The notes beneath the pieces are model-generated. The model saw only the letters and a program-made list of their open reading frames with translations. It made no database searches and had not been told where the DNA came from. Below are positions 18,022 to 28,143 of a stretch of DNA of 64,000 bases, piece after piece. Origin of the DNA: Phytohabitans rumicis (GTDB lineage Bacteria; Actinomycetota; Actinomycetes; Mycobacteriales; Micromonosporaceae); contig NZ_BLPG01000002.1 of assembly GCF_011764445.1 (NCBI RefSeq), positions 248,001 to 312,000 of the forward strand, written 5' to 3'. The translations under genes were made by a program, and so were the position numbers. How positions within the stretch are numbered: the stretch's first letter is position 1; each line of letters starts with the position of its first letter.

Positions 18022-18771
18022 ATGAAGACCACCGGCAACACGATCCTGATCACGGGCGGCACCTCGGGCATCGGGCACGGTCTGGCCGTGCGGTTCCACG
18101 AGGCCGGCAACAAGGTGATCATCGCCGGTCGGCGTAAGGAACTGCTCGATCAGATCGCCACCGAGCACCCAGGCATCGAGTCGATCGTGCTGGACGTCGC
18201 GGACCCGGCGTCGATCACCCGCGCCGCCGACACCCTGGCGGCTACGCACCCCCGGCTTAACGTCCTGGTCAACAACGCCGGCATCATGCTGCCGGAGAAC
18301 CTGCTCGACCCGGCCTCGCTGCCGGTCGCCGAGGACCACGTCACGACGAACCTGCTCGGCACGATCCGGATGACGTACGCCTTCCTGCCGCACCTGGTGA
18401 CCAGGGACGACGCGGTTGTCATGAACATCACCTCGGCGCTGGCGTTCGTGCCGCTGCCGATCACCCCGACCTACAACGCGACCAAGGCCGCCCTGCGCTC
18501 GTTCTCCGAGAGCCTGCGCGTCCAACTCGCCGGCACACCCGTCCAGGTCATCGAGGTGGCCCCACCGGGCGTGCGGACCACCCTGATGGGCCAGCAGGAC
18601 GCCGAGAACGCCATGCCACTCGATGAGTTCCTGACCGAGACCCTGACGCTGCTGAGCACCCAGCCCGACGCCAAGGAAATCGTCGTCGAACGCGCCAAGT
18701 TCGTCCGCTACGCCGAGGCCAACGGCACCTACGACCAGGTCCTGGCCATGCTCAGCGGCGTCGGCGCCTGA
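18022..18771 (+). CDS. Short-chain dehydrogenase (DltE/YqjQ-like)
   Basis: 249 residues. TGGTSGIGHGLA is the cofactor loop, VLVNNAGIMLP the NNAG motif, MNITSALAFVP carries the catalytic Ser, and YNATKAAL is YxxxK. The shortened C-terminus and VAPPGVRTTLMG are typical of the DltE-like subgroup. The ribosome site AAAGGAGAG lies shortly before ATG 18022. Divergent from an MmyB-type regulator, which presumably represses it until its ligand, or the enzyme's substrate, is present. Confidence 0.88.
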   Translation: MKTTGNTILITGGTSGIGHGLAVRFHEAGNKVIIAGRRKELLDQIATEHPGIESIVLDVADPASITRAADTLAATHPRLNVLVNNAGIMLPENLLDPASLPVAEDHVTTNLLGTIRMTYAFLPHLVTRDDAVVMNITSALAFVPLPITPTYNATKAALRSFSESLRVQLAGTPVQVIEVAPPGVRTTLMGQQDAENAMPLDEFLTETLTLLSTQPDAKEIVVERAKFVRYAEANGTYDQVLAMLSGVGA

Positions 18772-18912
18772 AATCCGCAACCCGGCCTGGCCGTGCCCTT
18801 AGGGCCGGTGGCCGGCTTCGCGGGCGCATGCCCGACAAAACATATCGGGTTAGTAGGTAAGCTTGATCACAATGACGGGATCGACGCGGCCCTGACCGAT
18901 ACGTTTCAGTGC

Positions 18913-19944
18913 GTGAACAGGAAGAACGGCAGCCCGCTCCGGCTGCGCCACATAGCCGCCATCACGTCCGCCGTGCTCGTCCTGGCCGCGTGCGGCGACG
19001 GCGGCGGCACAGACGACGCCAGCGACGCCCCGTCGTCGACGCAGAAGGTCAAGGTCGCGCTCGACTGGACGCCGAACACCAACCACACCGGGCTCTACGT
19101 GGCCCAGGCCAAGGGCTTCTTCGCCCAGCACGGCCTGGACGTGGAGATCGTCCAGCCGGGCGACGCGGACGCCGCGTCGCTGCTCGCCGCCGGCAAGGTG
19201 CAGTTCGCGATCAGCGCCCAGGAGTCGCTGACCCAGGCCCGCGCGCAGAACGTCCCGCTCGTCTCGGTGGCCGCGATCGTCCAGCACAACACCTCCGGCT
19301 TCGCCTCACCGAAGGCCAAGGACATCACCCGGCCGGCGCAGTACGCCGGCAAGACCTACGGCGGGTACGGCGGGCCGGTCGAGGAGGCGCTGCTGCGTAC
19401 CCTCGTCGCGGCCGACGGCGGCGACGCCAGCGCGGTGAAGGTGGTGAACGTCGGCAACGCCGACTTCTTCACCGCCACCAAGAAGGACATCGACTTCGAG
19501 TGGATCTTCTACGGCTGGACCGGCGTCGAGGCCGAGTTGCGCGGCGAGCCCGTCAACATCCAGTACGTCAAGGACTACGACAAGGCGCTGGATTTCTACA
19601 CGCCGATCCTCATCACCAGCGAGAACCAGATCTCCAGCAGCCCCGACGTCGTCAAGTCGTTCGTCGCGGCGACCTCCGAGGGGTACACGTACGCGGCCGA
19701 CCACTCGGCCGAGTCCGCCGACGTCCTGCTGAAGGCGGCCCCGGACCTGGACAAGGACCTGGTCACCAAGAGCCAGGAGTGGCTCGGGCCGAAGTACAAG
19801 GACGACGCGCCCCGCTGGGGCGAGCAGTCCGCACAGGTCTGGACCGACTTCACCGCTTGGCTGTACGAGCACAAGGTGATCACCACCCAGGTCGACGCGA
19901 CCAAGGCGTACACCAACGATTTCCTGCCAACGGCGAATGGCTGA
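18913..19944 (+). CDS. NMT1/SsuA-type ABC substrate-binding lipoprotein
   Basis: 343 residues from GTG 18913, chosen because it gives a proper lipoprotein signal: basic VNRKNGSPLRLRH, hydrophobic stretch, and lipobox LAAC with Cys27. KVALDWTPNTNHTGLYVAQAKGFF is the NMT1/THI5 domain start, also found in aliphatic sulfonate, taurine and pyrimidine binders. It is first in a run of seven overlapping same-strand genes; permease start and this stop overlap by eight bases. The companions (rhodanese, FMN monooxygenase) favour an organosulfur ligand over a thiamine precursor. The ribosome site is poor; the upstream 140 bp hold no clear operator. Confidence 0.85.
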   Translation: MNRKNGSPLRLRHIAAITSAVLVLAACGDGGGTDDASDAPSSTQKVKVALDWTPNTNHTGLYVAQAKGFFAQHGLDVEIVQPGDADAASLLAAGKVQFAISAQESLTQARAQNVPLVSVAAIVQHNTSGFASPKAKDITRPAQYAGKTYGGYGGPVEEALLRTLVAADGGDASAVKVVNVGNADFFTATKKDIDFEWIFYGWTGVEAELRGEPVNIQYVKDYDKALDFYTPILITSENQISSSPDVVKSFVAATSEGYTYAADHSAESADVLLKAAPDLDKDLVTKSQEWLGPKYKDDAPRWGEQSAQVWTDFTAWLYEHKVITTQVDATKAYTNDFLPTANG

Positions 19945-20731
19945 CGGCTCTCTCGCGGGCCGGCGGGGACGGCGGGTGCGGCGCTGGGCCGCGCCCGCCG
20001 CGGCCATCGTGCTGCTGGTGGCGGCCTGGCAGGTGTTCACGGCGGTGTCCGGGACCGAGCAGTGGCTGCTGCCCAGCCCGACCGACGCGCTCGCGGCCGG
20101 CCGCGAGGACCACGCCTCGCTGGCCACCCACACGCTGGCCACCGCCAAGCTGGCGCTGATCGGCTTCGCCGCCGGCGTGGTCACCGGGTTGGCCATCGCG
20201 GTTGTGCTGCACCTGGTGCCGCTGCTGCGCGCCGCGCTCTACCCGCTGCTGGTGGTCAGCCAGAACATCCCGACGATCGCGCTCGCGCCGCTGCTCGTGG
20301 TGTGGCTCGGCTTCGGCCTCCTGCCCAAGGTGGTGGTCATCGTGCTGGTGTGCTTCTTCCCGCTCACCGTGGCCACATTGGACGGCCTGCGCCGCACCGA
20401 CCCGGCCATCGAGGACTACCTGCTGATGAGCGGCGCCAACCGCCGGCAGCTGTTCCTCAAGCTGGAGCTGCCGCACGCCCTGCCACCGATGTTCTCCGGC
20501 CTGAAGATCGCCGCCACGTACAGCGTCGTGGGCGCCATCATCGCGGAGTGGATGGGCGCCGACGAAGGACTCGGCAAGTACATGATCGTGGCGAAGTCGG
20601 CGTTCCGGGCCGACAAGATCTTCGTAGCGATCGCCATCGTGGTGGTGCTGAGCCTGGCCGTGCTGGGCGCCGTGCTGCTGCTCGAACGCCTGCTGATCCG
20701 CGGCCGTACACCGAGGGACGCCGATGTCTGA
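19937..20731 (+). CDS. ABC transporter permease (SsuC/TauC/ThiX type)
   Basis: 264 residues, about six membrane helices. The EAA loop that contacts the ATPase is LLMSGANRRQLFLKLELPHALPPMFSGLK (about residues 158-186). It pairs with the lipoprotein and ATPase on either side: its start overlaps the upstream stop and its stop overlaps the ATPase start by eight bases. Imports the ligand captured by the lipoprotein, inferred to be an organosulfonate-like compound. Confidence 0.9.
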   Translation: MADGSLAGRRGRRVRRWAAPAAAIVLLVAAWQVFTAVSGTEQWLLPSPTDALAAGREDHASLATHTLATAKLALIGFAAGVVTGLAIAVVLHLVPLLRAALYPLLVVSQNIPTIALAPLLVVWLGFGLLPKVVVIVLVCFFPLTVATLDGLRRTDPAIEDYLLMSGANRRQLFLKLELPHALPPMFSGLKIAATYSVVGAIIAEWMGADEGLGKYMIVAKSAFRADKIFVAIAIVVVLSLAVLGAVLLLERLLIRGRTPRDADV

Positions 20732-21493
20732 ACCGGCTCTGGAGGTATCGGGCCTGCACAAGTCGTTCGGCGCCCTCGACGTGCTGGACGGGGTCTCGTT
20801 GCGCGTCGACGACGGCGAGTTCGTGTCCATTGTGGGCCCGTCCGGCAGTGGCAAGAGCACGCTGTTCCACATCGTCGGCGGCCTGATCGCGCCCGACCGC
20901 GGTTCGGTGCGGGTCAACGGCCGCCAGGCGAACGGCCGGCGCGGGCTCATCGGGTACATGCCGCAGCAACCGGCGCTGCTGCCGTGGCGCACCGTCGAGG
21001 ACAACGTCGTGCTCGCGCGGGAACTCGCCGGCACGCCCCGCCGCAAATCCCGTGCGCTGGCCCGGCAGTGGCTGGGCAACGTCGGGCTCGGCGACTTCGC
21101 GCGGGCGTACCCGGACGCGCTGTCCGGCGGGATGCGGCAGCGCGTGGCGTTCCTGCGGGCCCTGCTCAGCGACCGCGACCTGCTCTGCCTGGACGAGCCG
21201 TTCAGCGCGCTGGACGCGATGTTGCGCGCCGAGATGCACCGCTGGCTGCTGGACATGTGGGAGGAGCACCGCCGCTCCGTGCTGTTCGTGACCCACAACA
21301 TCGAGGAGGCGCTGCTGCTCTCCTCCACCGTGTACGTCTTCACCCGCCGCCCAGCCCGCGTGCTGGAACGCGTCGAGGTGCCCTTCCCCGCCCGCGCCGC
21401 GACGAGGTCGTCGACGACCCCGAGTTCGTCCGGCTCCGGCGCCGCCTCACCAACCTGCTCAAGACAGCAACGCTCAAGGACCGTGCGACATGA
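20724..21493 (+). CDS. ABC transporter ATPase (SsuB/TauB type), one frame break near the 3' end
   Basis: Walker A GPSGSGKST (about residues 38-46), Q-loop YMPQQPALLPWR, signature LSGGMRQRV, Walker B LLCLDEPFSALD and the H-loop VTHNIEEAL are all intact. After VEVPFP the frame is lost. Adding one C to the run at 21386-21389 restores RPRRDEVVDDPEFVRLRRRL and a stop at 21491-21493 that overlaps the next ATG as ATGA, giving 256 residues, the normal length. Without repair the frame runs on through two downstream genes to 23621, a chimera that cannot be real. Confidence 0.85.
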
Positions 21494-22398
21494 CCCACCT
21501 GCGCCTGATGCTCGAGTACTACCACCCGTGGCCCAACGCGGCCGGCTTCCACCTCGCCAGCAGCGAGGGCTGGTACCGCGACGCCGGCCTCGACGTCGAG
21601 ATCACCGTCTTCGACCCGCTGCGCGGGGACACGCTGGAACACCTGGTACGCGCCGAGGCCGACCTCGGCGTCTTTCCCACCAACCGCCTGCTGGTACGCC
21701 GGCTGGCGGGCCAGCCGCTGGCGGCGGTGGCCGCGGTCAACCACCGCGGCATGGAGACGATCCAGACGGTGGTCGGCCGGGGCATCGAACGTCCCAGGGA
21801 CCTGGCCGGGCGGCGGATCGCGCTCAACCCGACCCCGCGCGGGGTGGCGATGGTGCGCCACCTCGTCGCGGCCGACGGCGGCGACCCCGACGCCGTGGTG
21901 CTGGTCGACAGTGGACACCGCGAGCTGAGCGTGGACGACATCGCCGCGGGCGAGGTGGACGCGACCTTCGGCGGGTACTGGGCGTGGGATGCGCTCATGG
22001 GCGACCTGCCGGCCGAGCAGCGTCTCATGTGGCCGGTCGACGAGATCGGCGCACCGCCGTACCACAGCTACCTGCTCGGGATCGGGCCCAGCCTGCTGGA
22101 CCGGCCCGAGGTGGTACGGACCTTCCTGGAGGTGACCGCCCGCGGCTACCACGCGGTCGTCCAGCGTCCCGAGCACGCGCTCGCCGTCCTGGACCGCGTC
22201 ATCCCGTACTTCCCGCGCCGCCTGCTGGCCCGGTCGCTGGAGCTGATCGCGTCCACCTGGCTGCACCAGGGCCGGTGGGGTGCGATCCGCGACGACCTGA
22301 TGCAGCCGTACGCGGACTGGCTGGCCCGGTACGGCGTGCTGGCCAGCGGAGACCGGTGGCGGGACGCGGTCGCCACCGACCTGGCAGGCAGCTGGTGA
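21490..22398 (+). CDS. NMT1-like substrate-binding-fold protein without export signal
   Basis: 302 residues starting MTHLRLMLEYYHPWPNAAGF. It has the periplasmic-binding-protein fold of the NMT1/ThiY group: the first strand comes at residue 4, then GWYRDAGLDVEITVFD, TNRLLVRRLAGQPLAAVAAV and VDATFGGYWAWDAL. There is no signal peptide, lipobox or membrane segment, unlike the lipoprotein that opens the operon. It may bind the imported compound inside the cell, or act as an enzyme as THI5 does. It overlaps the ATPase (ATGA) and the rhodanese gene (GTGA), so it is translationally coupled to both. Confidence 0.72.
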   Translation: MTHLRLMLEYYHPWPNAAGFHLASSEGWYRDAGLDVEITVFDPLRGDTLEHLVRAEADLGVFPTNRLLVRRLAGQPLAAVAAVNHRGMETIQTVVGRGIERPRDLAGRRIALNPTPRGVAMVRHLVAADGGDPDAVVLVDSGHRELSVDDIAAGEVDATFGGYWAWDALMGDLPAEQRLMWPVDEIGAPPYHSYLLGIGPSLLDRPEVVRTFLEVTARGYHAVVQRPEHALAVLDRVIPYFPRRLLARSLELIASTWLHQGRWGAIRDDLMQPYADWLARYGVLASGDRWRDAVATDLAGSW

Positions 22399-23621
22399 GC
22401 GTGCGCCCGCTCATCGACGCCGACGGGCTCGCGGCTCAGCCCGGCGCGGTGGTGCTGGACGCCACGGTCGCGCTGCCGGCCCCCGCGCACGACGGCGACC
22501 ACCGGGCCGCCAGCGGCCGGGATGCCTGGGAGCGGGCGCACATCCCCGGCTCGGTGCACGCGGACCTGCTCCACGAACTGAGCGATCAGTCAGCGCCGTA
22601 CCACTTCGCGCGGCCGGACCCGGACACGCTCGCGCGCCAGCTGGGCGCGCTGGGCGTGACCGACGGCGCCACGGTGGTCGTCTACGACACCGGCGGTGGC
22701 ATCTGGGCCGCCCGGCTGTGGTGGCTGCTGCGCTGGATAGGTGTGGACGCGGCGGTCCTGGACGGCGGCCTGGCGGCCTGGGCGGCGGCCGGCCACCCGG
22801 TCGCGTCCGGCCCGGCCACGCCCGAGCCCGGCACGCTGACCCCACGCGTCCGCGGTGGACTGTGGGTGGACCGGCCGGACCTGGAAGGCTGGATGGCCGG
22901 TGACGCGGCCGCGACCGTCGTCTGCGCCCTCTCCCCCGAGGTGTTCCGCGGCGACGTGCCGACCCGGTACGCCCGCCGCGGCCACATCCCAGGCAGCATC
23001 AACCTGCCCGCTCGTGCCCTGGCCGAGCTCCTCCTGTCGCCGGCTGAACTCCGATCGGCGTTGGACCCACTGGTGGAGAGCCCGGACCCGGTGTGGGTGT
23101 ACTGCGGCGGCGGCATCTCCGCGGCCAGCCTCGCGCTCGCGCTCGCCCTCGCCGGCCGCGACGACGTCGCCGTGTACGACGGGTCGTTGGAGGAGTGGGC
23201 GGCCGACCCGGAGCTGCCACTCTCGTCCGACAAGCTCTCTCCGGCGGTGCGGGCGCTCCTGGACGCCCCCGAGTTCGCCGTGCTGTCCACACTGGATCCG
23301 GACGGCAGCCCGCACGCGACCGTCATGTGGGTCGGGCGCGACGGCGACGCGCTCGTCCTGGCCTCCAAGAACGGGCGCCGGCAGGTGCGCAACCTGCGCC
23401 GCGACCCGCGCGCCACCGTCCTGGTCTACGAGCGCGCCAAGCCCACCCGGTACGTCGAGGTCCGCGGCACCGCGACGCTCCACGAGGACGGCGCGAGGGA
23501 CGTCGTGGACCGGCTCGCCCGCGCCTACATCGGGGCCGACCACGCCGCCGGCCCGGCCGACCAGGAGCGCGACCGGGTGGTCATCCGGATCGCGCCCGAG
23601 CGCGTCTACCACCGGGGTTGA
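22395..23621 (+). CDS. Two-domain rhodanese fused to a PPOX (flavin/F420-type) domain
   Basis: 408 residues from GTG 22395. Domain 1 (about 1-135) is a rhodanese fold whose active-site loop reads YDTGGGIW with Asp98 where Cys would be, so it is inactive. Domain 2 (about 155-275) has the sulfurtransferase loop CGGGISA with Cys237, as in SseA/3-mercaptopyruvate sulfurtransferases. Domain 3 (about 281-408; FAVLSTLDPDGSPHATVMW, then NGRRQVRNLRRDPRATVLV) is a PPOX-class split-barrel that binds FMN or F420. The fusion suggests sulfur transfer coupled to a redox step on the same substrate. It overlaps the previous gene by GTGA. Confidence 0.83.
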   Translation: MSVRPLIDADGLAAQPGAVVLDATVALPAPAHDGDHRAASGRDAWERAHIPGSVHADLLHELSDQSAPYHFARPDPDTLARQLGALGVTDGATVVVYDTGGGIWAARLWWLLRWIGVDAAVLDGGLAAWAAAGHPVASGPATPEPGTLTPRVRGGLWVDRPDLEGWMAGDAAATVVCALSPEVFRGDVPTRYARRGHIPGSINLPARALAELLLSPAELRSALDPLVESPDPVWVYCGGGISAASLALALALAGRDDVAVYDGSLEEWAADPELPLSSDKLSPAVRALLDAPEFAVLSTLDPDGSPHATVMWVGRDGDALVLASKNGRRQVRNLRRDPRATVLVYERAKPTRYVEVRGTATLHEDGARDVVDRLARAYIGADHAAGPADQERDRVVIRIAPERVYHRG

Positions 23622-23629
23622 GCGCAGAG

Positions 23630-24241
23630 GTGAGGCAACGGCCGGAGCCACGACGGCGGACGAGCGCCGAGCCTCGGAGCGAACATCAGGCTCTGAGCGA
23701 CGTTGCCGACCTGCTCAGCGCCCGGCCACCGCGCGCCGGCCGGGTGAAGGTGCTGGCCGTCGAGGGCCGCTCCGGCGCGGGCAAGTCCACCCTGGCCACC
23801 GCGCTCGCGGCCGAACTGGACGCGCCGGTGATCCGGATGGACGACCTGTACGCCGGCTGGGACGGCCTGCTCGCCGGCGTCGACGCGCTGGTGGACTGGG
23901 TGCTGGCCCCGCTGGGTCGCGGCGAGCCGGCACGCTGGCGGCGGTACGACTGGCACCTGGGCCGGTACGCCGAATGGCACCCGGTGCCCGCCACGGACGT
24001 GCTCGTCGTGGAGGGGGTCGGCGCCGGCGCCCGCCCGGTCGCCCCGTACCTGAGCACCCTGGTGTGGCTGGACGCCCCCGACGACGTGCGCCGGGAGCGC
24101 GCCCTGGCCCGCGACGGCGACACCTACGCGCCGCACTGGGACCGCTGGGCGCGGCACGAGAACGACTTCTACGCGCAGGACGATGTCCGCTCCCGGGCCG
24201 ACGTCCTCATCTCCGTCCCGACCCCTGGAGGGCCCGCATGA
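23630..24241 (+). CDS. Uridine-kinase-like P-loop ATPase
   Basis: About 203 residues. Walker A is EGRSGAGKSTLA; RMDDLYAGWDGL is the substrate-side loop, VLVVEGVGAGAR the Walker B-like strand, and DAPDDVRRERALARDGDTY the lid region. The family (AAA/UDK-like) phosphorylates small hydroxyl compounds; in a sulfur-acquisition operon its substrate is not obvious and may not be uridine. Start choice is open: GTG 23630, or TTG 23618, which overlaps the preceding stop. Its own stop overlaps the monooxygenase start as ATGA, so it is a true operon member. Confidence 0.75.
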   Translation: MRQRPEPRRRTSAEPRSEHQALSDVADLLSARPPRAGRVKVLAVEGRSGAGKSTLATALAAELDAPVIRMDDLYAGWDGLLAGVDALVDWVLAPLGRGEPARWRRYDWHLGRYAEWHPVPATDVLVVEGVGAGARPVAPYLSTLVWLDAPDDVRRERALARDGDTYAPHWDRWARHENDFYAQDDVRSRADVLISVPTPGGPA

Positions 24242-25622
24242 CCGCCAAGCGCATCCGGCTGCACGGGCTGCGGCAGTCCACTGTGGGCCACACCGCCATC
24301 GGGCTGTGGCGCCACCCGGACAGCCAGGCGCACCGGTACCGGGAGCTGGACTACTGGCTGGAGACCGCGCGGATCCTCGAACGCGGCCGGTTCGACGCGC
24401 TGTTCATCGCCGACGCGCTCGGCCCCTTGGAGGTCTACCAGGGGCGGGTCGACGCGGCTCTGCGCGACGGCATCCAGACCCCCACCGACGACCCGCTGCT
24501 GGCCATCTCGGCGATGGCCGCGGTGACCGAGCACCTCGGCTTCGCCGCGACGGTCTCGTCCACGTACGAGCGGCCGTACGCGTTCGCCCGCAAGATGGCC
24601 ACTTTGGACCACCTGACCGGCGGCCGGATCGGCTGGAACATCGTGACCTCCGCGCTGGACAGCGCCGCCCGCAACCTCGGCCTGGACCGGCAGTTGCCGC
24701 ACGACGAGCGGTACGCCGTCGCCGAGGAGTTCATGGAGGTGGTCTACAAGCTGTGGGAGGGCAGCTGGGAGGACGGCGCGGTGGTGCGGGACGCCGACGC
24801 GGGCGTCTTCGTCGACCCCGCCAAGGTGCACCCGGTGGCCCACGACGGCACCCACTACCGGGTGCCGGGCATCGCCCTGTTCGAGCCGTCGGTCCAGCGC
24901 ACCCCGGTGCTGTACCAGGCCGGCACGTCGCCGGTCGGCCGGGCCTTCGCGGCCCGCCACGCCGAGGGCGTCTTCCTCAGCACGTACCGGGCGGACATGG
25001 CCCGCAAGCTCGTCGACGACGTACGCGAACGGGCCCGCCAAGCCGGGCGGGACCCCGAGTCGCTGAAGTTCTTCGCGATCGCCACGGTCATCGTGGCCGA
25101 CACCGACGCCGAGGCCCAAGCCAAGCTGGCCGACTACCAGCGATACGCCAGCGTCGAGGGCGGCCTGGCCCGGTGGAGCGCGCTCATGCACATCGACCTG
25201 TCCACACTCGACCCCGACCGGCCGCTGGAGTACGTCGACACCGACGGCATCCGCGGCATGGTGGAACTGTTCACCACGCTGGATCCGACCCGGCGCTGGA
25301 CGCCGCGCGCGATCGCCGAGTTCGTGGGGGTCGGTGGCGGCGGGCCGGTCATCGTCGGCTCCCCCGCACGGTCGCCGACGAGCTCGAACGCTGGGTCGAG
25401 GAGTCCGATGTGGACGGCTTCAACATCGCCGACCCGGTGCCGCCGGTCACCTTCCGCGACTTCGCCGACCTCGCCGTACCCGAATTGCAGGCCCGGGGCC
25501 GGGTCTGGACCGACTACCCCGGACGGACCCTGCGGGAGAGCTTCTACGGCCCGGGCCGGACGCGGGTCCGGGCCGACCACCCGGCGGCCGCGTACCGTCC
25601 ACAGCGGGATGGTGATTCATGA
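24238..25622 (+). CDS. FMN-dependent monooxygenase, NtaA/SnaA/DszA (LLM) family, one frame break
   Basis: About 461 residues after correction. GRFDALFIADALG, YERPYAFARKMATLDHLTGGRIGWNIVTS and the SWEDGAV-FVDPAKVHPV-DGTHYRVPG blocks are the family hallmarks. It uses FMNH2 from a separate reductase and O2, typically cleaving C-S bonds (DszA-like) or C-N bonds (NtaA-like). After VIVGSP the frame breaks. One extra C in the run at 25361-25365 restores RTVADELERWVEESDVDGFN and the normal C-terminus to TGA 25620-25622. Operon context with transporter and rhodanese suggests desulfurisation of an imported organosulfur compound. Its stop overlaps the start of a truncated second monooxygenase. Confidence 0.85.
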
Positions 25623-25765
25623 CCGCGCGACCGTTGCGGAAGCTGGGCTTCATGACGATTGGCCTGTCTTGTCCAGTTGGACGCGGCCTGTCCTGGGCAG
25701 GTCCGGCCGACCCGCGCGGAGAGTGTCCGGTCTCGAGCCTGACCGGGGTCGTTACCATCCACTAA
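25619..25765 (+). pseudogene. N-terminal stub of a second LLM-class monooxygenase
   Basis: ATG 25619 overlaps the preceding stop as ATGA and encodes MTARPLRKLGFMTIGL, the typical N-terminus of the alkanal/LLM monooxygenase group that often follows NtaA/SnaA-type genes. After residue 16 the sequence loses all similarity and ends at TAA 25763-25765. The rest of the gene, over 300 codons, has been deleted, with the junction at about 25667. The next gene, an amine oxidase, belongs to a different unit. The match is short but sits exactly where an operon gene should start. Confidence 0.6.
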
Positions 25766-25850
25766 CGTCACTGAAACACCGCGTTGAAAGCGTTTCCTTG
25801 CTGATCTTGATCTCCCCGTTCCGGGGATGTTCGATCGAGAGGAGACACAG

Positions 25851-27463
25851 GTGGCTACACCAGCAACCCGCCGGCAGTTCCTGCAAGCTGTCGGGGTAAC
25901 CGGCGGCGCGGGCACCCTCTACAGCACAATGGGTGCGCTCGGCCTCGCGCCCGCGGCACAGGCGGCACCACCGTTCCATGCGCCACGCGAATCCGACTTC
26001 ACGCTGACCGGGCGGGCGCGTAAATCCGTCCTCATCCTGGGTGGCGGCATCGCCGGGCTCGCGACAGCGTACGAGCTCGGCAAGGCTGGCTACCGCGTGC
26101 GGATCCTGGAGGCCCGCCAGCGCCCCGGCGGTCGCAACTGGACGGTGCGCGGCGGCACCACCGAGACCGACCTGGACGGCCACACCCAGCGCGCCGCGTT
26201 CGCGCCCGGTCAGTACCTCAACGCCGGACCGGCACGAATCGCGCAGCACATGGTCACCCTCGACTACTGCCGCGAGCTGGGCGTGCCGATCGAGATCTTC
26301 GGCAACCAGAACGCGGACGGCTACTACTACAACGAAAACGTCGGCGCGCTGTCCGGTACGGCCATCCGGCACCGCACCGCGAAGGCGGACGTGTACGGCT
26401 ACGTCTCGGAGCTGCTGGCGAAGGCGACCGACCAGGGCGCGCTCGACGGCTACCTGACCGCCGACGACAAGGAGCGGCTGCTGGCGTTCCTACGCAACTT
26501 CGGCGCGATCGGCCCTCGGGTCACCGAGAATCCGGCCGCGAGCTGGAGGTACACCGGCAGCAACCGGCGCGGATACCTGGTCGACCCGGGCGCCGGCCTG
26601 GAGGCGGGCACGCCGAACCTGCCGCCGTACGCCCTCTCCGACGTCATCGCCAGCGGCGTCGGGCAGTACCTCTCCTTCGAGTTCGGCTGGGACCAGGCGA
26701 TGCTGATGTTCCAGCCGGTCGGCGGCATGGACCGCATCCCGTACGCGCTGGAACGCGCCGTCGGCCGCGGCTCCATCACGTACGGCGCCCAGGTCAGCTC
26801 CATCACCAACACGACGGCCGGGGTGGAGGTGGTCTACACCGGACCGGACGGCTCCTCGAAGGTCGCCACCGCGGACTTCTGCGTGTGCACCATCCCGCCC
26901 CAGGTACTCGTCAACATCCCGTCCAACCTCACCCAGGCGGTCAAAGACGCCCTCGCGTACGCGGTCCCGGTGAGCACCGGGAAGATCGGGCTCCAGTACG
27001 GCCGGCGGTGGTGGGAGCGGGAGGAGAACATCTACGCCGGCATCACGAACACCAACATGGACCTGTCGACGATCTGGTACCCGTCGTACGGCTACCACGG
27101 CGCCAAGGGCGTACTCGTCGGCTACTACAACTTCGGCGCCAACGCGGACCTGTACGCCGCGCTCACCCCGCCGAGCGGCAGGCGCGGGCCATCGCGCAGG
27201 GCGTGAAGATCCACGGGGAGAGGTACCGGACCGAGCTGGAGAACGCGTTCTCGGTCGCCTGGCGGCGCACCCGCTACAGCGAGGGCGGCTGGGTCTCCTG
27301 GCCGTCGCGAACGAGCGGCCAGTACGCACGGCTTCTGGAGCCGGACCGCAACGTGTACTTCGCCGGCGACCACCTCAGCTACTACATCGCCTGGCAGGCA
27401 GGCGCTTTCGAGTCGGCCCGGAAGGTCGTCACCGACCTGCACGCCCGCGTCATGGCCAGTTAG
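25851..27463 (+). CDS. Tat-exported flavin amine oxidase / L-amino-acid oxidase, one frame break
   Basis: GTG 25851 follows AGGAG by six bases and starts a twin-arginine signal (TRRQFLQAVGVTGG). The FAD-binding motif is LILGGGIAGLATAYELGKAG (residues 61-80) followed by EARQRPGGR; the C-terminal FAD contact VYFAGDHLSYYIAWQAGAFESA is intact. The enzyme should oxidise an amine or amino acid to an imine with H2O2 release outside the cell. After LYAALTP the frame is lost. One extra C in the run at 27166-27169 restores AERQARAIAQGVKIHG and a 537-residue protein. The exported Rid protein 11 bp downstream probably acts on its imine product. Confidence 0.86.
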
Positions 27464-27474
27464 GAGACGACACC

Positions 27475-28143
27475 ATGTCCGCACGCCTCACCCGCCGCCG
27501 CATCGCGAGGGCGCTCGCCGTCGCACTGCCGGGCGCCGCCGTTTCGGCGGCCGCCGCAGCGCCGGCCAGCGCCACTGGCGGTACGCACCGCCTGCACCCG
27601 ACCGCGGTCAAACCGAACCTACCCGCCGGGCAGAGCAACCCGCTCATCGCCAGCGGTGTGAGCGTCGGCGGGCTCGTCGCGCTCTACCGCAGCAGCGGCA
27701 CCGGACCCGCCGCGCGCAACACCGGTGCGCCCGCCGGCAGCCCGGAGCTCTACATCGACCCGGCCCAGTTCCCCGGAGCCGCGCTGCCCGCTGGAGTGAC
27801 GCTGACCGAGGCGCAGGCGATGAACGCCCTGGCCCGCATCGGCGAGAACCTCGCGTCGGTCGGCCTCGGGTACGACGACGTCATCTCGATGCGCGTCTTC
27901 CTCGACAACCCACCCGCGGCCGCGAGCGCCGACTACACCGGCTGGAACCGCGCGTACCGGCAGTACTTCGCCAACATCGACCTGGTCAACGGCGCTGTCG
28001 TTCCGGTGCCGCTGGGCAGCGCCCCACCCGCGCCGCCGCTCGTGGCCAACCGGGCACGGCCGTCGCGCACCACCATCGAGGTCGCCAGCCTCCCGGTCGC
28101 CGGATGGCTCGTCGAGGTCGAGGTGGAGGCGGTCATCCGCTGA
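27475..28143 (+). CDS. Exported Rid (YjgF/RidA-like) protein
   Basis: 222 residues. An N-terminal twin-arginine-like signal (LTRRRIARALAVALPGAAV, Ala-rich to ASATGG) precedes a Rid domain: GVSVGGLVALYRSSGTGP, LTEAQAMNALARIGENLASVGLGYDDVISMRVFL and the final strand RTTIEVASLPVAGWLVEVEVEAV. Cytoplasmic RidA hydrolyses reactive imines or enamines; export is unusual. It lies directly behind an exported amine oxidase (AGGAG eight bases before ATG), so the two likely form a unit in which Rid speeds breakdown of the oxidase's imine product. Some residues of the canonical Arg pocket cannot be aligned with confidence. Confidence 0.82.
   Translation: MSARLTRRRIARALAVALPGAAVSAAAAAPASATGGTHRLHPTAVKPNLPAGQSNPLIASGVSVGGLVALYRSSGTGPAARNTGAPAGSPELYIDPAQFPGAALPAGVTLTEAQAMNALARIGENLASVGLGYDDVISMRVFLDNPPAAASADYTGWNRAYRQYFANIDLVNGAVVPVPLGSAPPAPPLVANRARPSRTTIEVASLPVAGWLVEVEVEAVIR

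What the first reader, a model, noticed from the sequence alone, without database searches (positions are those of the whole stretch)
18913..25765. Seven-gene overlapping operon combining NMT1-type uptake, rhodanese-PPOX fusion, kinase and FMN monooxygenase
Genes overlap by 4-8 bases, implying strict co-translation. Lipoprotein, permease and ATPase import a ligand; a second, unexported NMT1-like protein, a sulfurtransferase fused to a flavin/F420 split-barrel, a uridine-kinase-like enzyme and a DszA/NtaA-type monooxygenase follow. The kinase in particular does not belong to known ssu/tau/dsz pathways, so this may be an undescribed route for an organosulfur (or sulfur-containing nucleoside-like) compound.
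Basis: partly seen in the sequence, partly recalled or inferred. Interest (0 to 1): 0.72.

Follow-up and report, generated by a model that had tools for sequence, protein, structure and literature searches.

The report
Probable thiamine uptake-and-breakdown gene module
A set of seven adjoining bacterial genes, kept together across distant bacteria, probably imports vitamin B1 (or a close relative of it) and takes it apart, removing its sulfur; what it really acts on still has to be tested.

Summary
The seven genes are real, but ATPase and monooxygenase are frame-broken in this assembly, probably by sequencing error. The module is conserved: a public-genome scan for the unexported NMT1-like protein gave 55 loci. 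In the 53 that I counted (window plus 52), rhodanese is found in 50, the window's P-loop kinase in 22, an unrelated APH-family kinase in 28, never both; the three with neither are contig-cut. Twelve loci, window included, share one gene order. Rhodanese is fused to PPOX here and to either kinase elsewhere. Pseudomonas-type genomes keep NMT1-like protein, kinase and rhodanese but have a TonB receptor and a PnuC-family transporter instead of the ABC importer.

The importer's closest solved relative is a thiamin-bound protein; the predicted fold of the unexported protein ranks nearest to that same structure, then the FAMP-binding protein and Thi5, ahead of sulfonate binders. The ligand is best read as thiamine or a thiamine-derived compound. 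Favoured mechanism: uptake, phosphorylation, thiazole-ring breakdown, sulfur removal by the rhodanese. Substrate and chemistry are inferred, not shown; salvage rather than breakdown remains a serious rival.

The parts
18913..19944 (+). Lipoprotein substrate-binding protein (NMT1 family, thiamin-type)
   Evidence: PF09084 238 bits; best solved relative 4nmy, E 5e-99, thiamin-bound; lipobox-like LAAC seen in the translation
19937..20731 (+). ABC permease
   Evidence: PF00528 104.5 bits
20724..21493 (+). ABC ATPase, frame changes at about 21383-21386; stop of the second frame at 21493
   Evidence: PF00005; two-frame match to L065 protein
21490..22398 (+). Unexported NMT1-like protein (called NMT1b here), family marker of the module
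   Evidence: PF09084 160.5 bits; 52 further homologous loci counted; predicted fold pLDDT 93.6, nearest by Foldseek E-value to 4nmy
22395..23621 (+). MST-like two-domain rhodanese (about residues 1-278) fused to Rv1155-type PPOX split barrel (about 281-408)
   Evidence: PF00581 and PF01243; TIGR03618 126.6 bits over its cut-off; active-site loop YCGGGISA
23618..24241 (+). P-loop kinase (PRK06547-like; uridine-cytidine kinase/phosphoribulokinase fold)
   Evidence: NF005115 168 bits, just under its cut-off of 173; fold search
24238..25622 (+). FMN-dependent monooxygenase of the NtaA/DmoA family, frame changes between about 25323 and 25362
   Evidence: TIGR03860 457 bits over its cut-off; closest solved chain 6ak1, dimethyl-sulfide monooxygenase; two-frame match to L065
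25619..25765 (+). 48-residue frame overlapping the end of the monooxygenase gene; not convincingly a gene
   Evidence: no Pfam match, no clear relative in the loci

Best explanation
A co-inherited module that imports thiamine or a thiamine-derived compound and breaks it down, probably to release its sulfur. SHOWN by sequence and comparison: one conserved module of importer, NMT1b, kinase and rhodanese, with PPOX and monooxygenase as an add-on in part of the family; two unrelated kinases that replace each other; two unrelated import routes that replace each other. INFERRED, in order: (1) the importer brings in thiamine. (2) The kinase phosphorylates its hydroxyethyl group (or that of a product), trapping it. 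(3) NMT1b, a cytosolic binding-protein-fold protein with many nearly invariant polar residues, binds and probably acts on the (phosphorylated) ring-opened thiol form, splitting pyrimidine from the thiazole-derived part. (4) That part would be an alpha-mercaptoketone (5-hydroxy-3-mercapto-2-pentanone, known from non-enzymatic thiamine breakdown, or its phosphate), chemically parallel to 3-mercaptopyruvate, and the MST-like rhodanese removes its sulfur as a persulfide. (5) Where present, the monooxygenase, served by the PPOX protein or another flavin reductase, oxidises one of the fragments.
For: SBP: 4nmy at E 5e-99, then the FAMP-binding 3ix1 at 5e-34; 4NMY is described as thiamin-bound (passage of PMC10586155; entry title). 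NMT1b model by Foldseek E-value: 4nmy first (TM 0.85), 3ix1 second (0.82), then Thi5 chains (0.69-0.79), then TauA (0.65-0.67) and SsuA (0.70-0.72). In 4 loci of the genome scan (three Pseudomonas, one [Pseudomonas] boreopolis) and 10 more from a search of 149 genomes of the genus around L041 (11 with a hit, L041's own among them), NMT1b-kinase-rhodanese is followed by a TonB receptor and a PnuC-family transporter in 14 of 14, with an e(P4)-like acid phosphatase in 4 of 14. Recalled, from no call: the PnuC family includes thiamine transporters; so the overlap of the two import routes points to thiamine. Kinase types mutually exclusive, 22/28/0, none in 3 contig-cut loci. Fusions P-loop kinase-rhodanese in L060 (498 aa) and APH kinase-rhodanese in L087 (676 aa). 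GntR-FCD genes in 8 of 53 loci, GntR-UTRA in 4 of 53 and in 8 of the 10 new Pseudomonas-type loci; such repressors often serve catabolic genes (recalled). No TPP riboswitch in the window or in 18 scanned loci, whereas the same tool finds one in front of this genome's own thiamine-synthesis operon, so the module is not controlled as TPP supply. 5-hydroxy-3-mercapto-2-pentanone as a thiamine breakdown intermediate: passages of PMC6270652.
Against: I found no ligand, activity or expression evidence for these proteins. 7 of 18 module-bearing genomes searched show no ThiC, and 4 of those also lack ThiE and a strong ThiG hit (two Sanguibacter isolates and two MAGs); destroying thiamine would be odd in an auxotroph and fits salvage better. 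The rhodanese falls below the curated MST cut-off (122.4 against 250), and its CGGG loop is not special to the module: related rhodaneses outside it have YCGGGIAA too (L072-L074). The ordinary importer loci of the same SBP family (L002-L005) and L012 carry no TPP riboswitch either, so the importer family is not tied to thiamine by that route. NMT1-type genes serve other ligands: an 'NMT1 motif' riboswitch senses xanthine and uric acid (title and abstract start only, PMC7373994). The Foldseek TM-scores of Thi5 and SsuA overlap. PPOX is in 18 of 53 and the monooxygenase in 19 of 53 loci, so the full seven-gene scheme is not general.
Confidence: 0.45

Rival explanations
1. Salvage or repair: the module imports thiamine breakdown or oxidation products and rebuilds a usable thiamine precursor, the rhodanese supplying rather than removing sulfur.
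For: Same SBP clade as the FAMP-binding protein 3ix1; module present in genomes without ThiC (7 of 18) and in apparent full auxotrophs (4 of 18); structural nearness of NMT1b to Thi5.
Against: 11 of 18 genomes, the window's own included, have ThiC; all 11 have ThiE and 10 of 11 a strong ThiG. No TPP riboswitch on the module. NMT1b of the window has no cysteine, so not the Thi5 cysteine stretch seen. Sanguibacter shows no ThiE, so a repaired pyrimidine could not be joined to thiazole.
Confidence: 0.22
2. One reading: a route for some other organosulfur compound, with a ThiY-like SBP of changed specificity; the monooxygenase cleaves a C-S bond as DmoA does.
For: Monooxygenase closest among solved chains to dimethyl-sulfide monooxygenase 6ak1; rhodanese in 50 of 53 loci; two further luciferase-like monooxygenase clusters (10 and 12) lie in the fetched flank of 15 of 55 loci, nearly all Streptomyces (families); cysK next to SBP-NMT1b in L063.
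Against: SBP and NMT1b rank with thiamin/pyrimidine binders, not sulfonate binders; the PnuC-type importer in Gram-negatives does not fit small sulfonates or sulfides.
Confidence: 0.18
3. A nucleoside-like or purine-like ligand: kinase of the uridine-cytidine kinase fold, PnuC importer with e(P4)-like phosphatase as for nicotinamide riboside.
For: Kinase fold; PnuC and e(P4)-like phosphatase; NMT1 genes under a xanthine riboswitch elsewhere (title and abstract start).
Against: The P-loop kinase is replaceable by an APH-family kinase; the SBP's best solved relative is thiamin-bound; an MST-like sulfurtransferase has no obvious role.
Confidence: 0.08
4. Detoxification of thiamine antivitamins (such as bacimethrin or methoxythiamine) by uptake, phosphorylation and destruction.
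For: Same ligand class; patchy distribution; antivitamin release is reported for another bacterium (abstract start of PMC12345177 in the listings).
Against: Actively importing a toxin to destroy it is uncommon; no link to antivitamin genes was looked for or seen.
Confidence: 0.05

Closest known systems
ThiXYZ / 4NMY-type thiamine or FAMP ABC importers
   Same: SBP, permease and ATPase families; SBP residues 41-339 aligned to 4nmy
   Different: co-inherited with NMT1b, kinase and rhodanese; no TPP riboswitch found
Thi5 (eukaryotic HMP-P synthase, also an NMT1-family protein)
   Same: binding-protein fold, TM 0.69-0.79
   Different: no sequence match at E 0.001, no cysteines in the window's NMT1b, sits in a gene module with kinase and rhodanese
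Riboflavin catabolism clusters (rca/lum; RcaE)
   Same: vitamin catabolism gene cluster; RcaE is a relative of the monooxygenase (passages of PMC12746152)
   Different: different vitamin; RcaE chain is more distant than the DmoA, LadA and HcbA1 chains; no NMT1b or rhodanese known to me there (recalled)
ssu / tau / dsz sulfur-scavenging operons
   Same: ABC importer with FMN monooxygenase
   Different: the Ssu and Tau models shown are all below their cut-offs; kinase, NMT1b and rhodanese have no place there (recalled)
3-mercaptopyruvate sulfurtransferase
   Same: two rhodanese domains, six-residue active loop beginning CG
   Different: below the PRK11493 cut-off; [TS]RYxRRG[HR]IP in 40 of 46 rows (another form in 6 of 46) where MST has its substrate arginines (residue roles recalled)

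Membership tests
NtaA/DmoA FMN monooxygenases (TIGR03860) | score over curated cut-off | tested here: met
   457.3 against 279.7 bits on the first 375 residues
Rv1155-type PPOX (TIGR03618) | score over curated cut-off | tested here: met
   126.6 against 79.05 bits
Rv1155-type PPOX (TIGR03618) | F420 or FMN as cofactor | not testable with these tools
   needs biochemistry
SsuA aliphatic sulfonate SBP (TIGR01728) | score over curated cut-off | tested here: not met
   62.7 (SBP) and 38.6 (NMT1b) against 163.5
SsuD alkanesulfonate monooxygenase (TIGR03565) | score over curated cut-off | tested here: not met
   77.1 against 518.2
PRK06547 kinase (NF005115) | score over curated cut-off | tested here: not met
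   168 against 173 bits: just below
Thiamin-type SBP (4NMY clade) | closest to thiamin-bound structure, ahead of other ligands | tested here: met
   4nmy 334.6 bits, next 3ix1 121.2 bits
Thiamin-type SBP (4NMY clade) | binds thiamin | not testable with these tools
   needs a binding assay
Thi5 HMP-P synthase | sequence relation and cysteine stretch | tested here: not met
   no Thi5 chain among the two matches of NMT1b at E 0.001; translation without cysteine, Thi5 Cys stretch visible
3-mercaptopyruvate sulfurtransferase (PRK11493) | score over curated cut-off | tested here: not met
   122.4 against 250
3-mercaptopyruvate sulfurtransferase (PRK11493) | catalytic Cys in a six-residue loop | tested here: met
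   YCG[GS]G[IV][SA]A in 45 of 45 rows with letters there, of 48 aligned
Riboflavin catabolism (rca/lum) | RcaE as closest relative of the monooxygenase | tested here: not met
   RcaE chain ranks fourth, 244.9 against 426.3 bits for 6ak1
TPP-riboswitch-controlled thiamine genes | TPP aptamer upstream | tested here: not met
   none at gathering score in the window or 18 loci; found at this genome's thi operon

The most novel reading that the evidence does not exclude
A first gene-level pathway for breaking down vitamin B1: import, phosphorylation by either of two interchangeable kinases, cleavage by a cytosolic binding-protein-fold enzyme (NMT1b, a new enzyme family), and sulfur removal from a mercaptoketone by a dedicated rhodanese, spread across Actinomycetota, Pseudomonas-type bacteria and a clostridial genome.
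Probability: 0.35. Interest if true: 0.82.

Novelty: new variant of a known kind. Interest (0 to 1): 0.64.

Why it matters
A 2025 paper states that only the catabolic pathways of vitamin B6, NAD+ and riboflavin are well characterised (Discussion passage of PMC12746152); my searches of an open-licence library (listings) showed no assigned gene pathway for bacterial thiamine breakdown of this kind. This module would make that question directly testable, would add a second intracellular enzyme family to the NMT1/binding-protein fold besides Thi5, and would bear on thiamine turnover in soils. Even if the substrate proves different, a module shared by distant bacteria, with two swappable kinases and two swappable importers, is a well-defined unsolved pathway.

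Tried and rejected
Thi5-type HMP synthesis by NMT1b: rejected (no cysteine, no sequence match, own genome has ThiC). ssu/tau membership: rejected on curated cut-offs. Chance neighbourhood: rejected by conservation. Reading the 48-residue frame 25619-25765 as a truncated second luciferase-like gene: no support. Riboswitch at 18600-19100: two matches far below gathering scores. Plasmid collection with NMT1b: 100 records, all under 60% identity; the 20 listed are at 23-30%, mostly annotated as ABC substrate-binding proteins. Order-level search with NMT1b: 5 of 200 genomes matched, but the 4 besides the window's own match the importer SBP better (27-29% to NMT1b). Phylum search with the rhodanese-PPOX protein: 6 of 396 genomes; the six matches outside the own genome (five genomes) cover the rhodanese part only. 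I fetched all six wider: five showed no module; one (L075) has monooxygenase-permease-ATPase-SBP-rhodanese on a short contig without NMT1b in view. TPP riboswitch search on importer loci L002-L005 and L012: none. Literature: nine searches listed no paper that I recognised as describing this module; I saw listings only, plus passages of three papers. The library holds open-licence papers only.

Dropped rows: L066, L067 and L068 (31-32% matches) were left out of the 53-locus counts. Presence was scored by tblastn within the fetched flanks, with the monooxygenase counted only at 60% identity or more. L020 was not held for the thi-gene search (18 genomes searched of 19 handles given). The NMT1b fold used 28 of 53 sequences; the kinase alignment used 17 of the 22 kinase loci.
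Full report
WHAT IS THERE. The window lies in a 10.7 Mb, three-contig genome, actinobacterial by its relatives. Seven genes run on the + strand from 18913 to 25622: lipoprotein substrate-binding protein (SBP), permease, ATPase, an NMT1-family protein without export signal (here NMT1b), a two-domain rhodanese fused to a PPOX split barrel, a P-loop kinase, and a monooxygenase of the NtaA/DmoA family. Junctions overlap by 8, 8, 4, 4, 4 and 4 bases, the ATPase/NMT1b one only across a frame change. Compared with Paractinoplanes lichenicola (L065), the ATPase and the monooxygenase each change frame once. Similar breaks appear in the next gene downstream and in the gene I read as thiO in this genome, so assembly error is the likeliest cause.

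HOW CONSERVED. Setting aside three at 31-32% identity leaves 52 plus the window. In these 53: rhodanese 50, SBP 47, permease 47, ATPase 48, P-loop kinase 22, APH-family kinase 28, PPOX 18, monooxygenase at 60% identity or more 19. No locus has both kinases; the three with neither (L023, L063, L064) are cut by contig ends. All 18 PPOX loci have the P-loop kinase; 18 of 19 monooxygenase loci do too, the other (L026) having the APH kinase. Twelve loci, the window included, share one identical order; the others show several other orders of the same genes. Within the window's own genus, only the own genome of 6 has it, so it is patchily distributed.

FUSIONS. Rhodanese-PPOX fusion is found in seven of the called proteins; in others PPOX is a separate gene. 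A P-loop kinase-rhodanese fusion (L060, 498 residues) and an APH kinase-rhodanese fusion (L087, 676 residues) occur as single open frames. Together with the exclusive pattern of the two kinases, this argues that phosphorylation and sulfur transfer are neighbouring steps and that either kinase does the same job.

GRAM-NEGATIVE VERSION. Four loci of the scan (three Pseudomonas, one [Pseudomonas] boreopolis) show no ABC importer; NMT1b, APH kinase and rhodanese are followed by a TonB receptor, a PnuC-family transporter and a GntR-UTRA gene. A search of 149 genomes of the genus around L041 found NMT1b in 11, L041's own genome included. The ten new loci, read by script, all have NMT1b-APH kinase-rhodanese-TonB receptor-PnuC; two carry the monooxygenase (71% in L087, 68% in L093), two the e(P4)-like phosphatase, and eight show the GntR gene.

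LIGAND CLUES. The SBP's best solved relative is 4nmy at E 5e-99, described as a thiamin-bound substrate-binding protein (PMC10586155, passage). The NMT1b model (pLDDT 93.6) ranks nearest to 4nmy, then the FAMP-binding protein 3ix1, then Thi5, with TauA and SsuA further down by E-value, though the TM-scores of Thi5 and SsuA overlap. 63 NMT1b positions are identical in at least 52 of 53 sequences, many of them Asp, Arg, Asn, Glu, Trp and Tyr, which looks like a kept binding or active site; I could not map them on a ligand. PnuC-family importers handle vitamins and nucleosides (recalled). Thiamine is the ligand that both import routes have in common; this is inference.

SULFUR STEP. The rhodanese has two domains and an active loop YCGGGISA, close to MST's. 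The region that in MST holds the substrate-binding arginines (recalled) reads [TS]RYxRRG[HR]IP in 40 of 46 rows and a second form in 6, so its substrate is probably not mercaptopyruvate; but the CGGG loop itself also occurs in related rhodaneses outside the module (L072-L074). Thiamine yields 5-hydroxy-3-mercapto-2-pentanone in non-enzymatic breakdown (PMC6270652, passages), an alpha-mercaptoketone to which an MST-like mechanism would apply. This is a proposal.

CONTROL. No TPP riboswitch at gathering score lies in the window or in 18 loci scanned. The same tool finds one in front of this genome's thiamine operon, which holds ThiE, ThiG and ThiC by family search and thiO, thiS and thiD as I read them by eye. 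So the genome appears to make its own thiamine and the module is not run as thiamine supply. GntR-type genes beside other copies would fit substrate-induced catabolism (recalled).

AGAINST. Of 18 module-bearing genomes, 11 have ThiC, 14 ThiE and 13 a strong ThiG; four lack all three. Those four fit salvage better than destruction, though two are MAGs. Ordinary importer loci of the same SBP family have no TPP riboswitch either. Sulfur regulation was not tested; the luciferase-like monooxygenases near 15 of 55 loci and cysK in L063 are only suggestive.

VERDICT. A real, widely kept module of which I found no description; the claim 'one pathway' is strong, 'thiamine or derivative' moderate, 'catabolic sulfur release' tentative. 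Nine searches of an open-licence library listed no account of it (named in Tried and rejected); a 2025 paper names B6, NAD+ and riboflavin as the only well-characterised catabolic pathways of this kind (PMC12746152, passage).

Noticed in passing
window 25827-27463: Flavin amine oxidase whose C-terminal part seems to lie in another frame from about 27203, followed by a Rid-family gene at 27475-28143; a further likely assembly frame error.
   Followed up: partly
L069:15942-16951 (own genome thi operon): A gene read by eye as thiO is also split into two frames, and TMP-TENI fragments in several frames lie next to thiG, supporting frequent indel errors in this assembly.
   Followed up: partly
L075:108-5275: Rhodanese, thiamin-type SBP, ATPase, permease and a monooxygenase 61% identical to the window's sit together in a genome of another class of the phylum; the short contig shows no NMT1b.
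   Followed up: partly
15 loci, nearly all Streptomyces, e.g. L032:13780-16903, L033:14018-16869: Downstream of the module lie several luciferase-like monooxygenases of different subfamilies.
   Followed up: partly
L063:5451-8933: In a clostridial MAG, cysteine synthase A (with an extra C-GCAxxG-C-C domain match) directly precedes the SBP-NMT1b pair.
   Followed up: partly
L060:3488-4984 and L087:8945-10975: Single-frame fusions of rhodanese with two unrelated kinases.
   Followed up: yes
genomes of L014, L016, L046: No ThiC found although ThiG and ThiE are present, suggesting need for an outside pyrimidine source.
   Followed up: no
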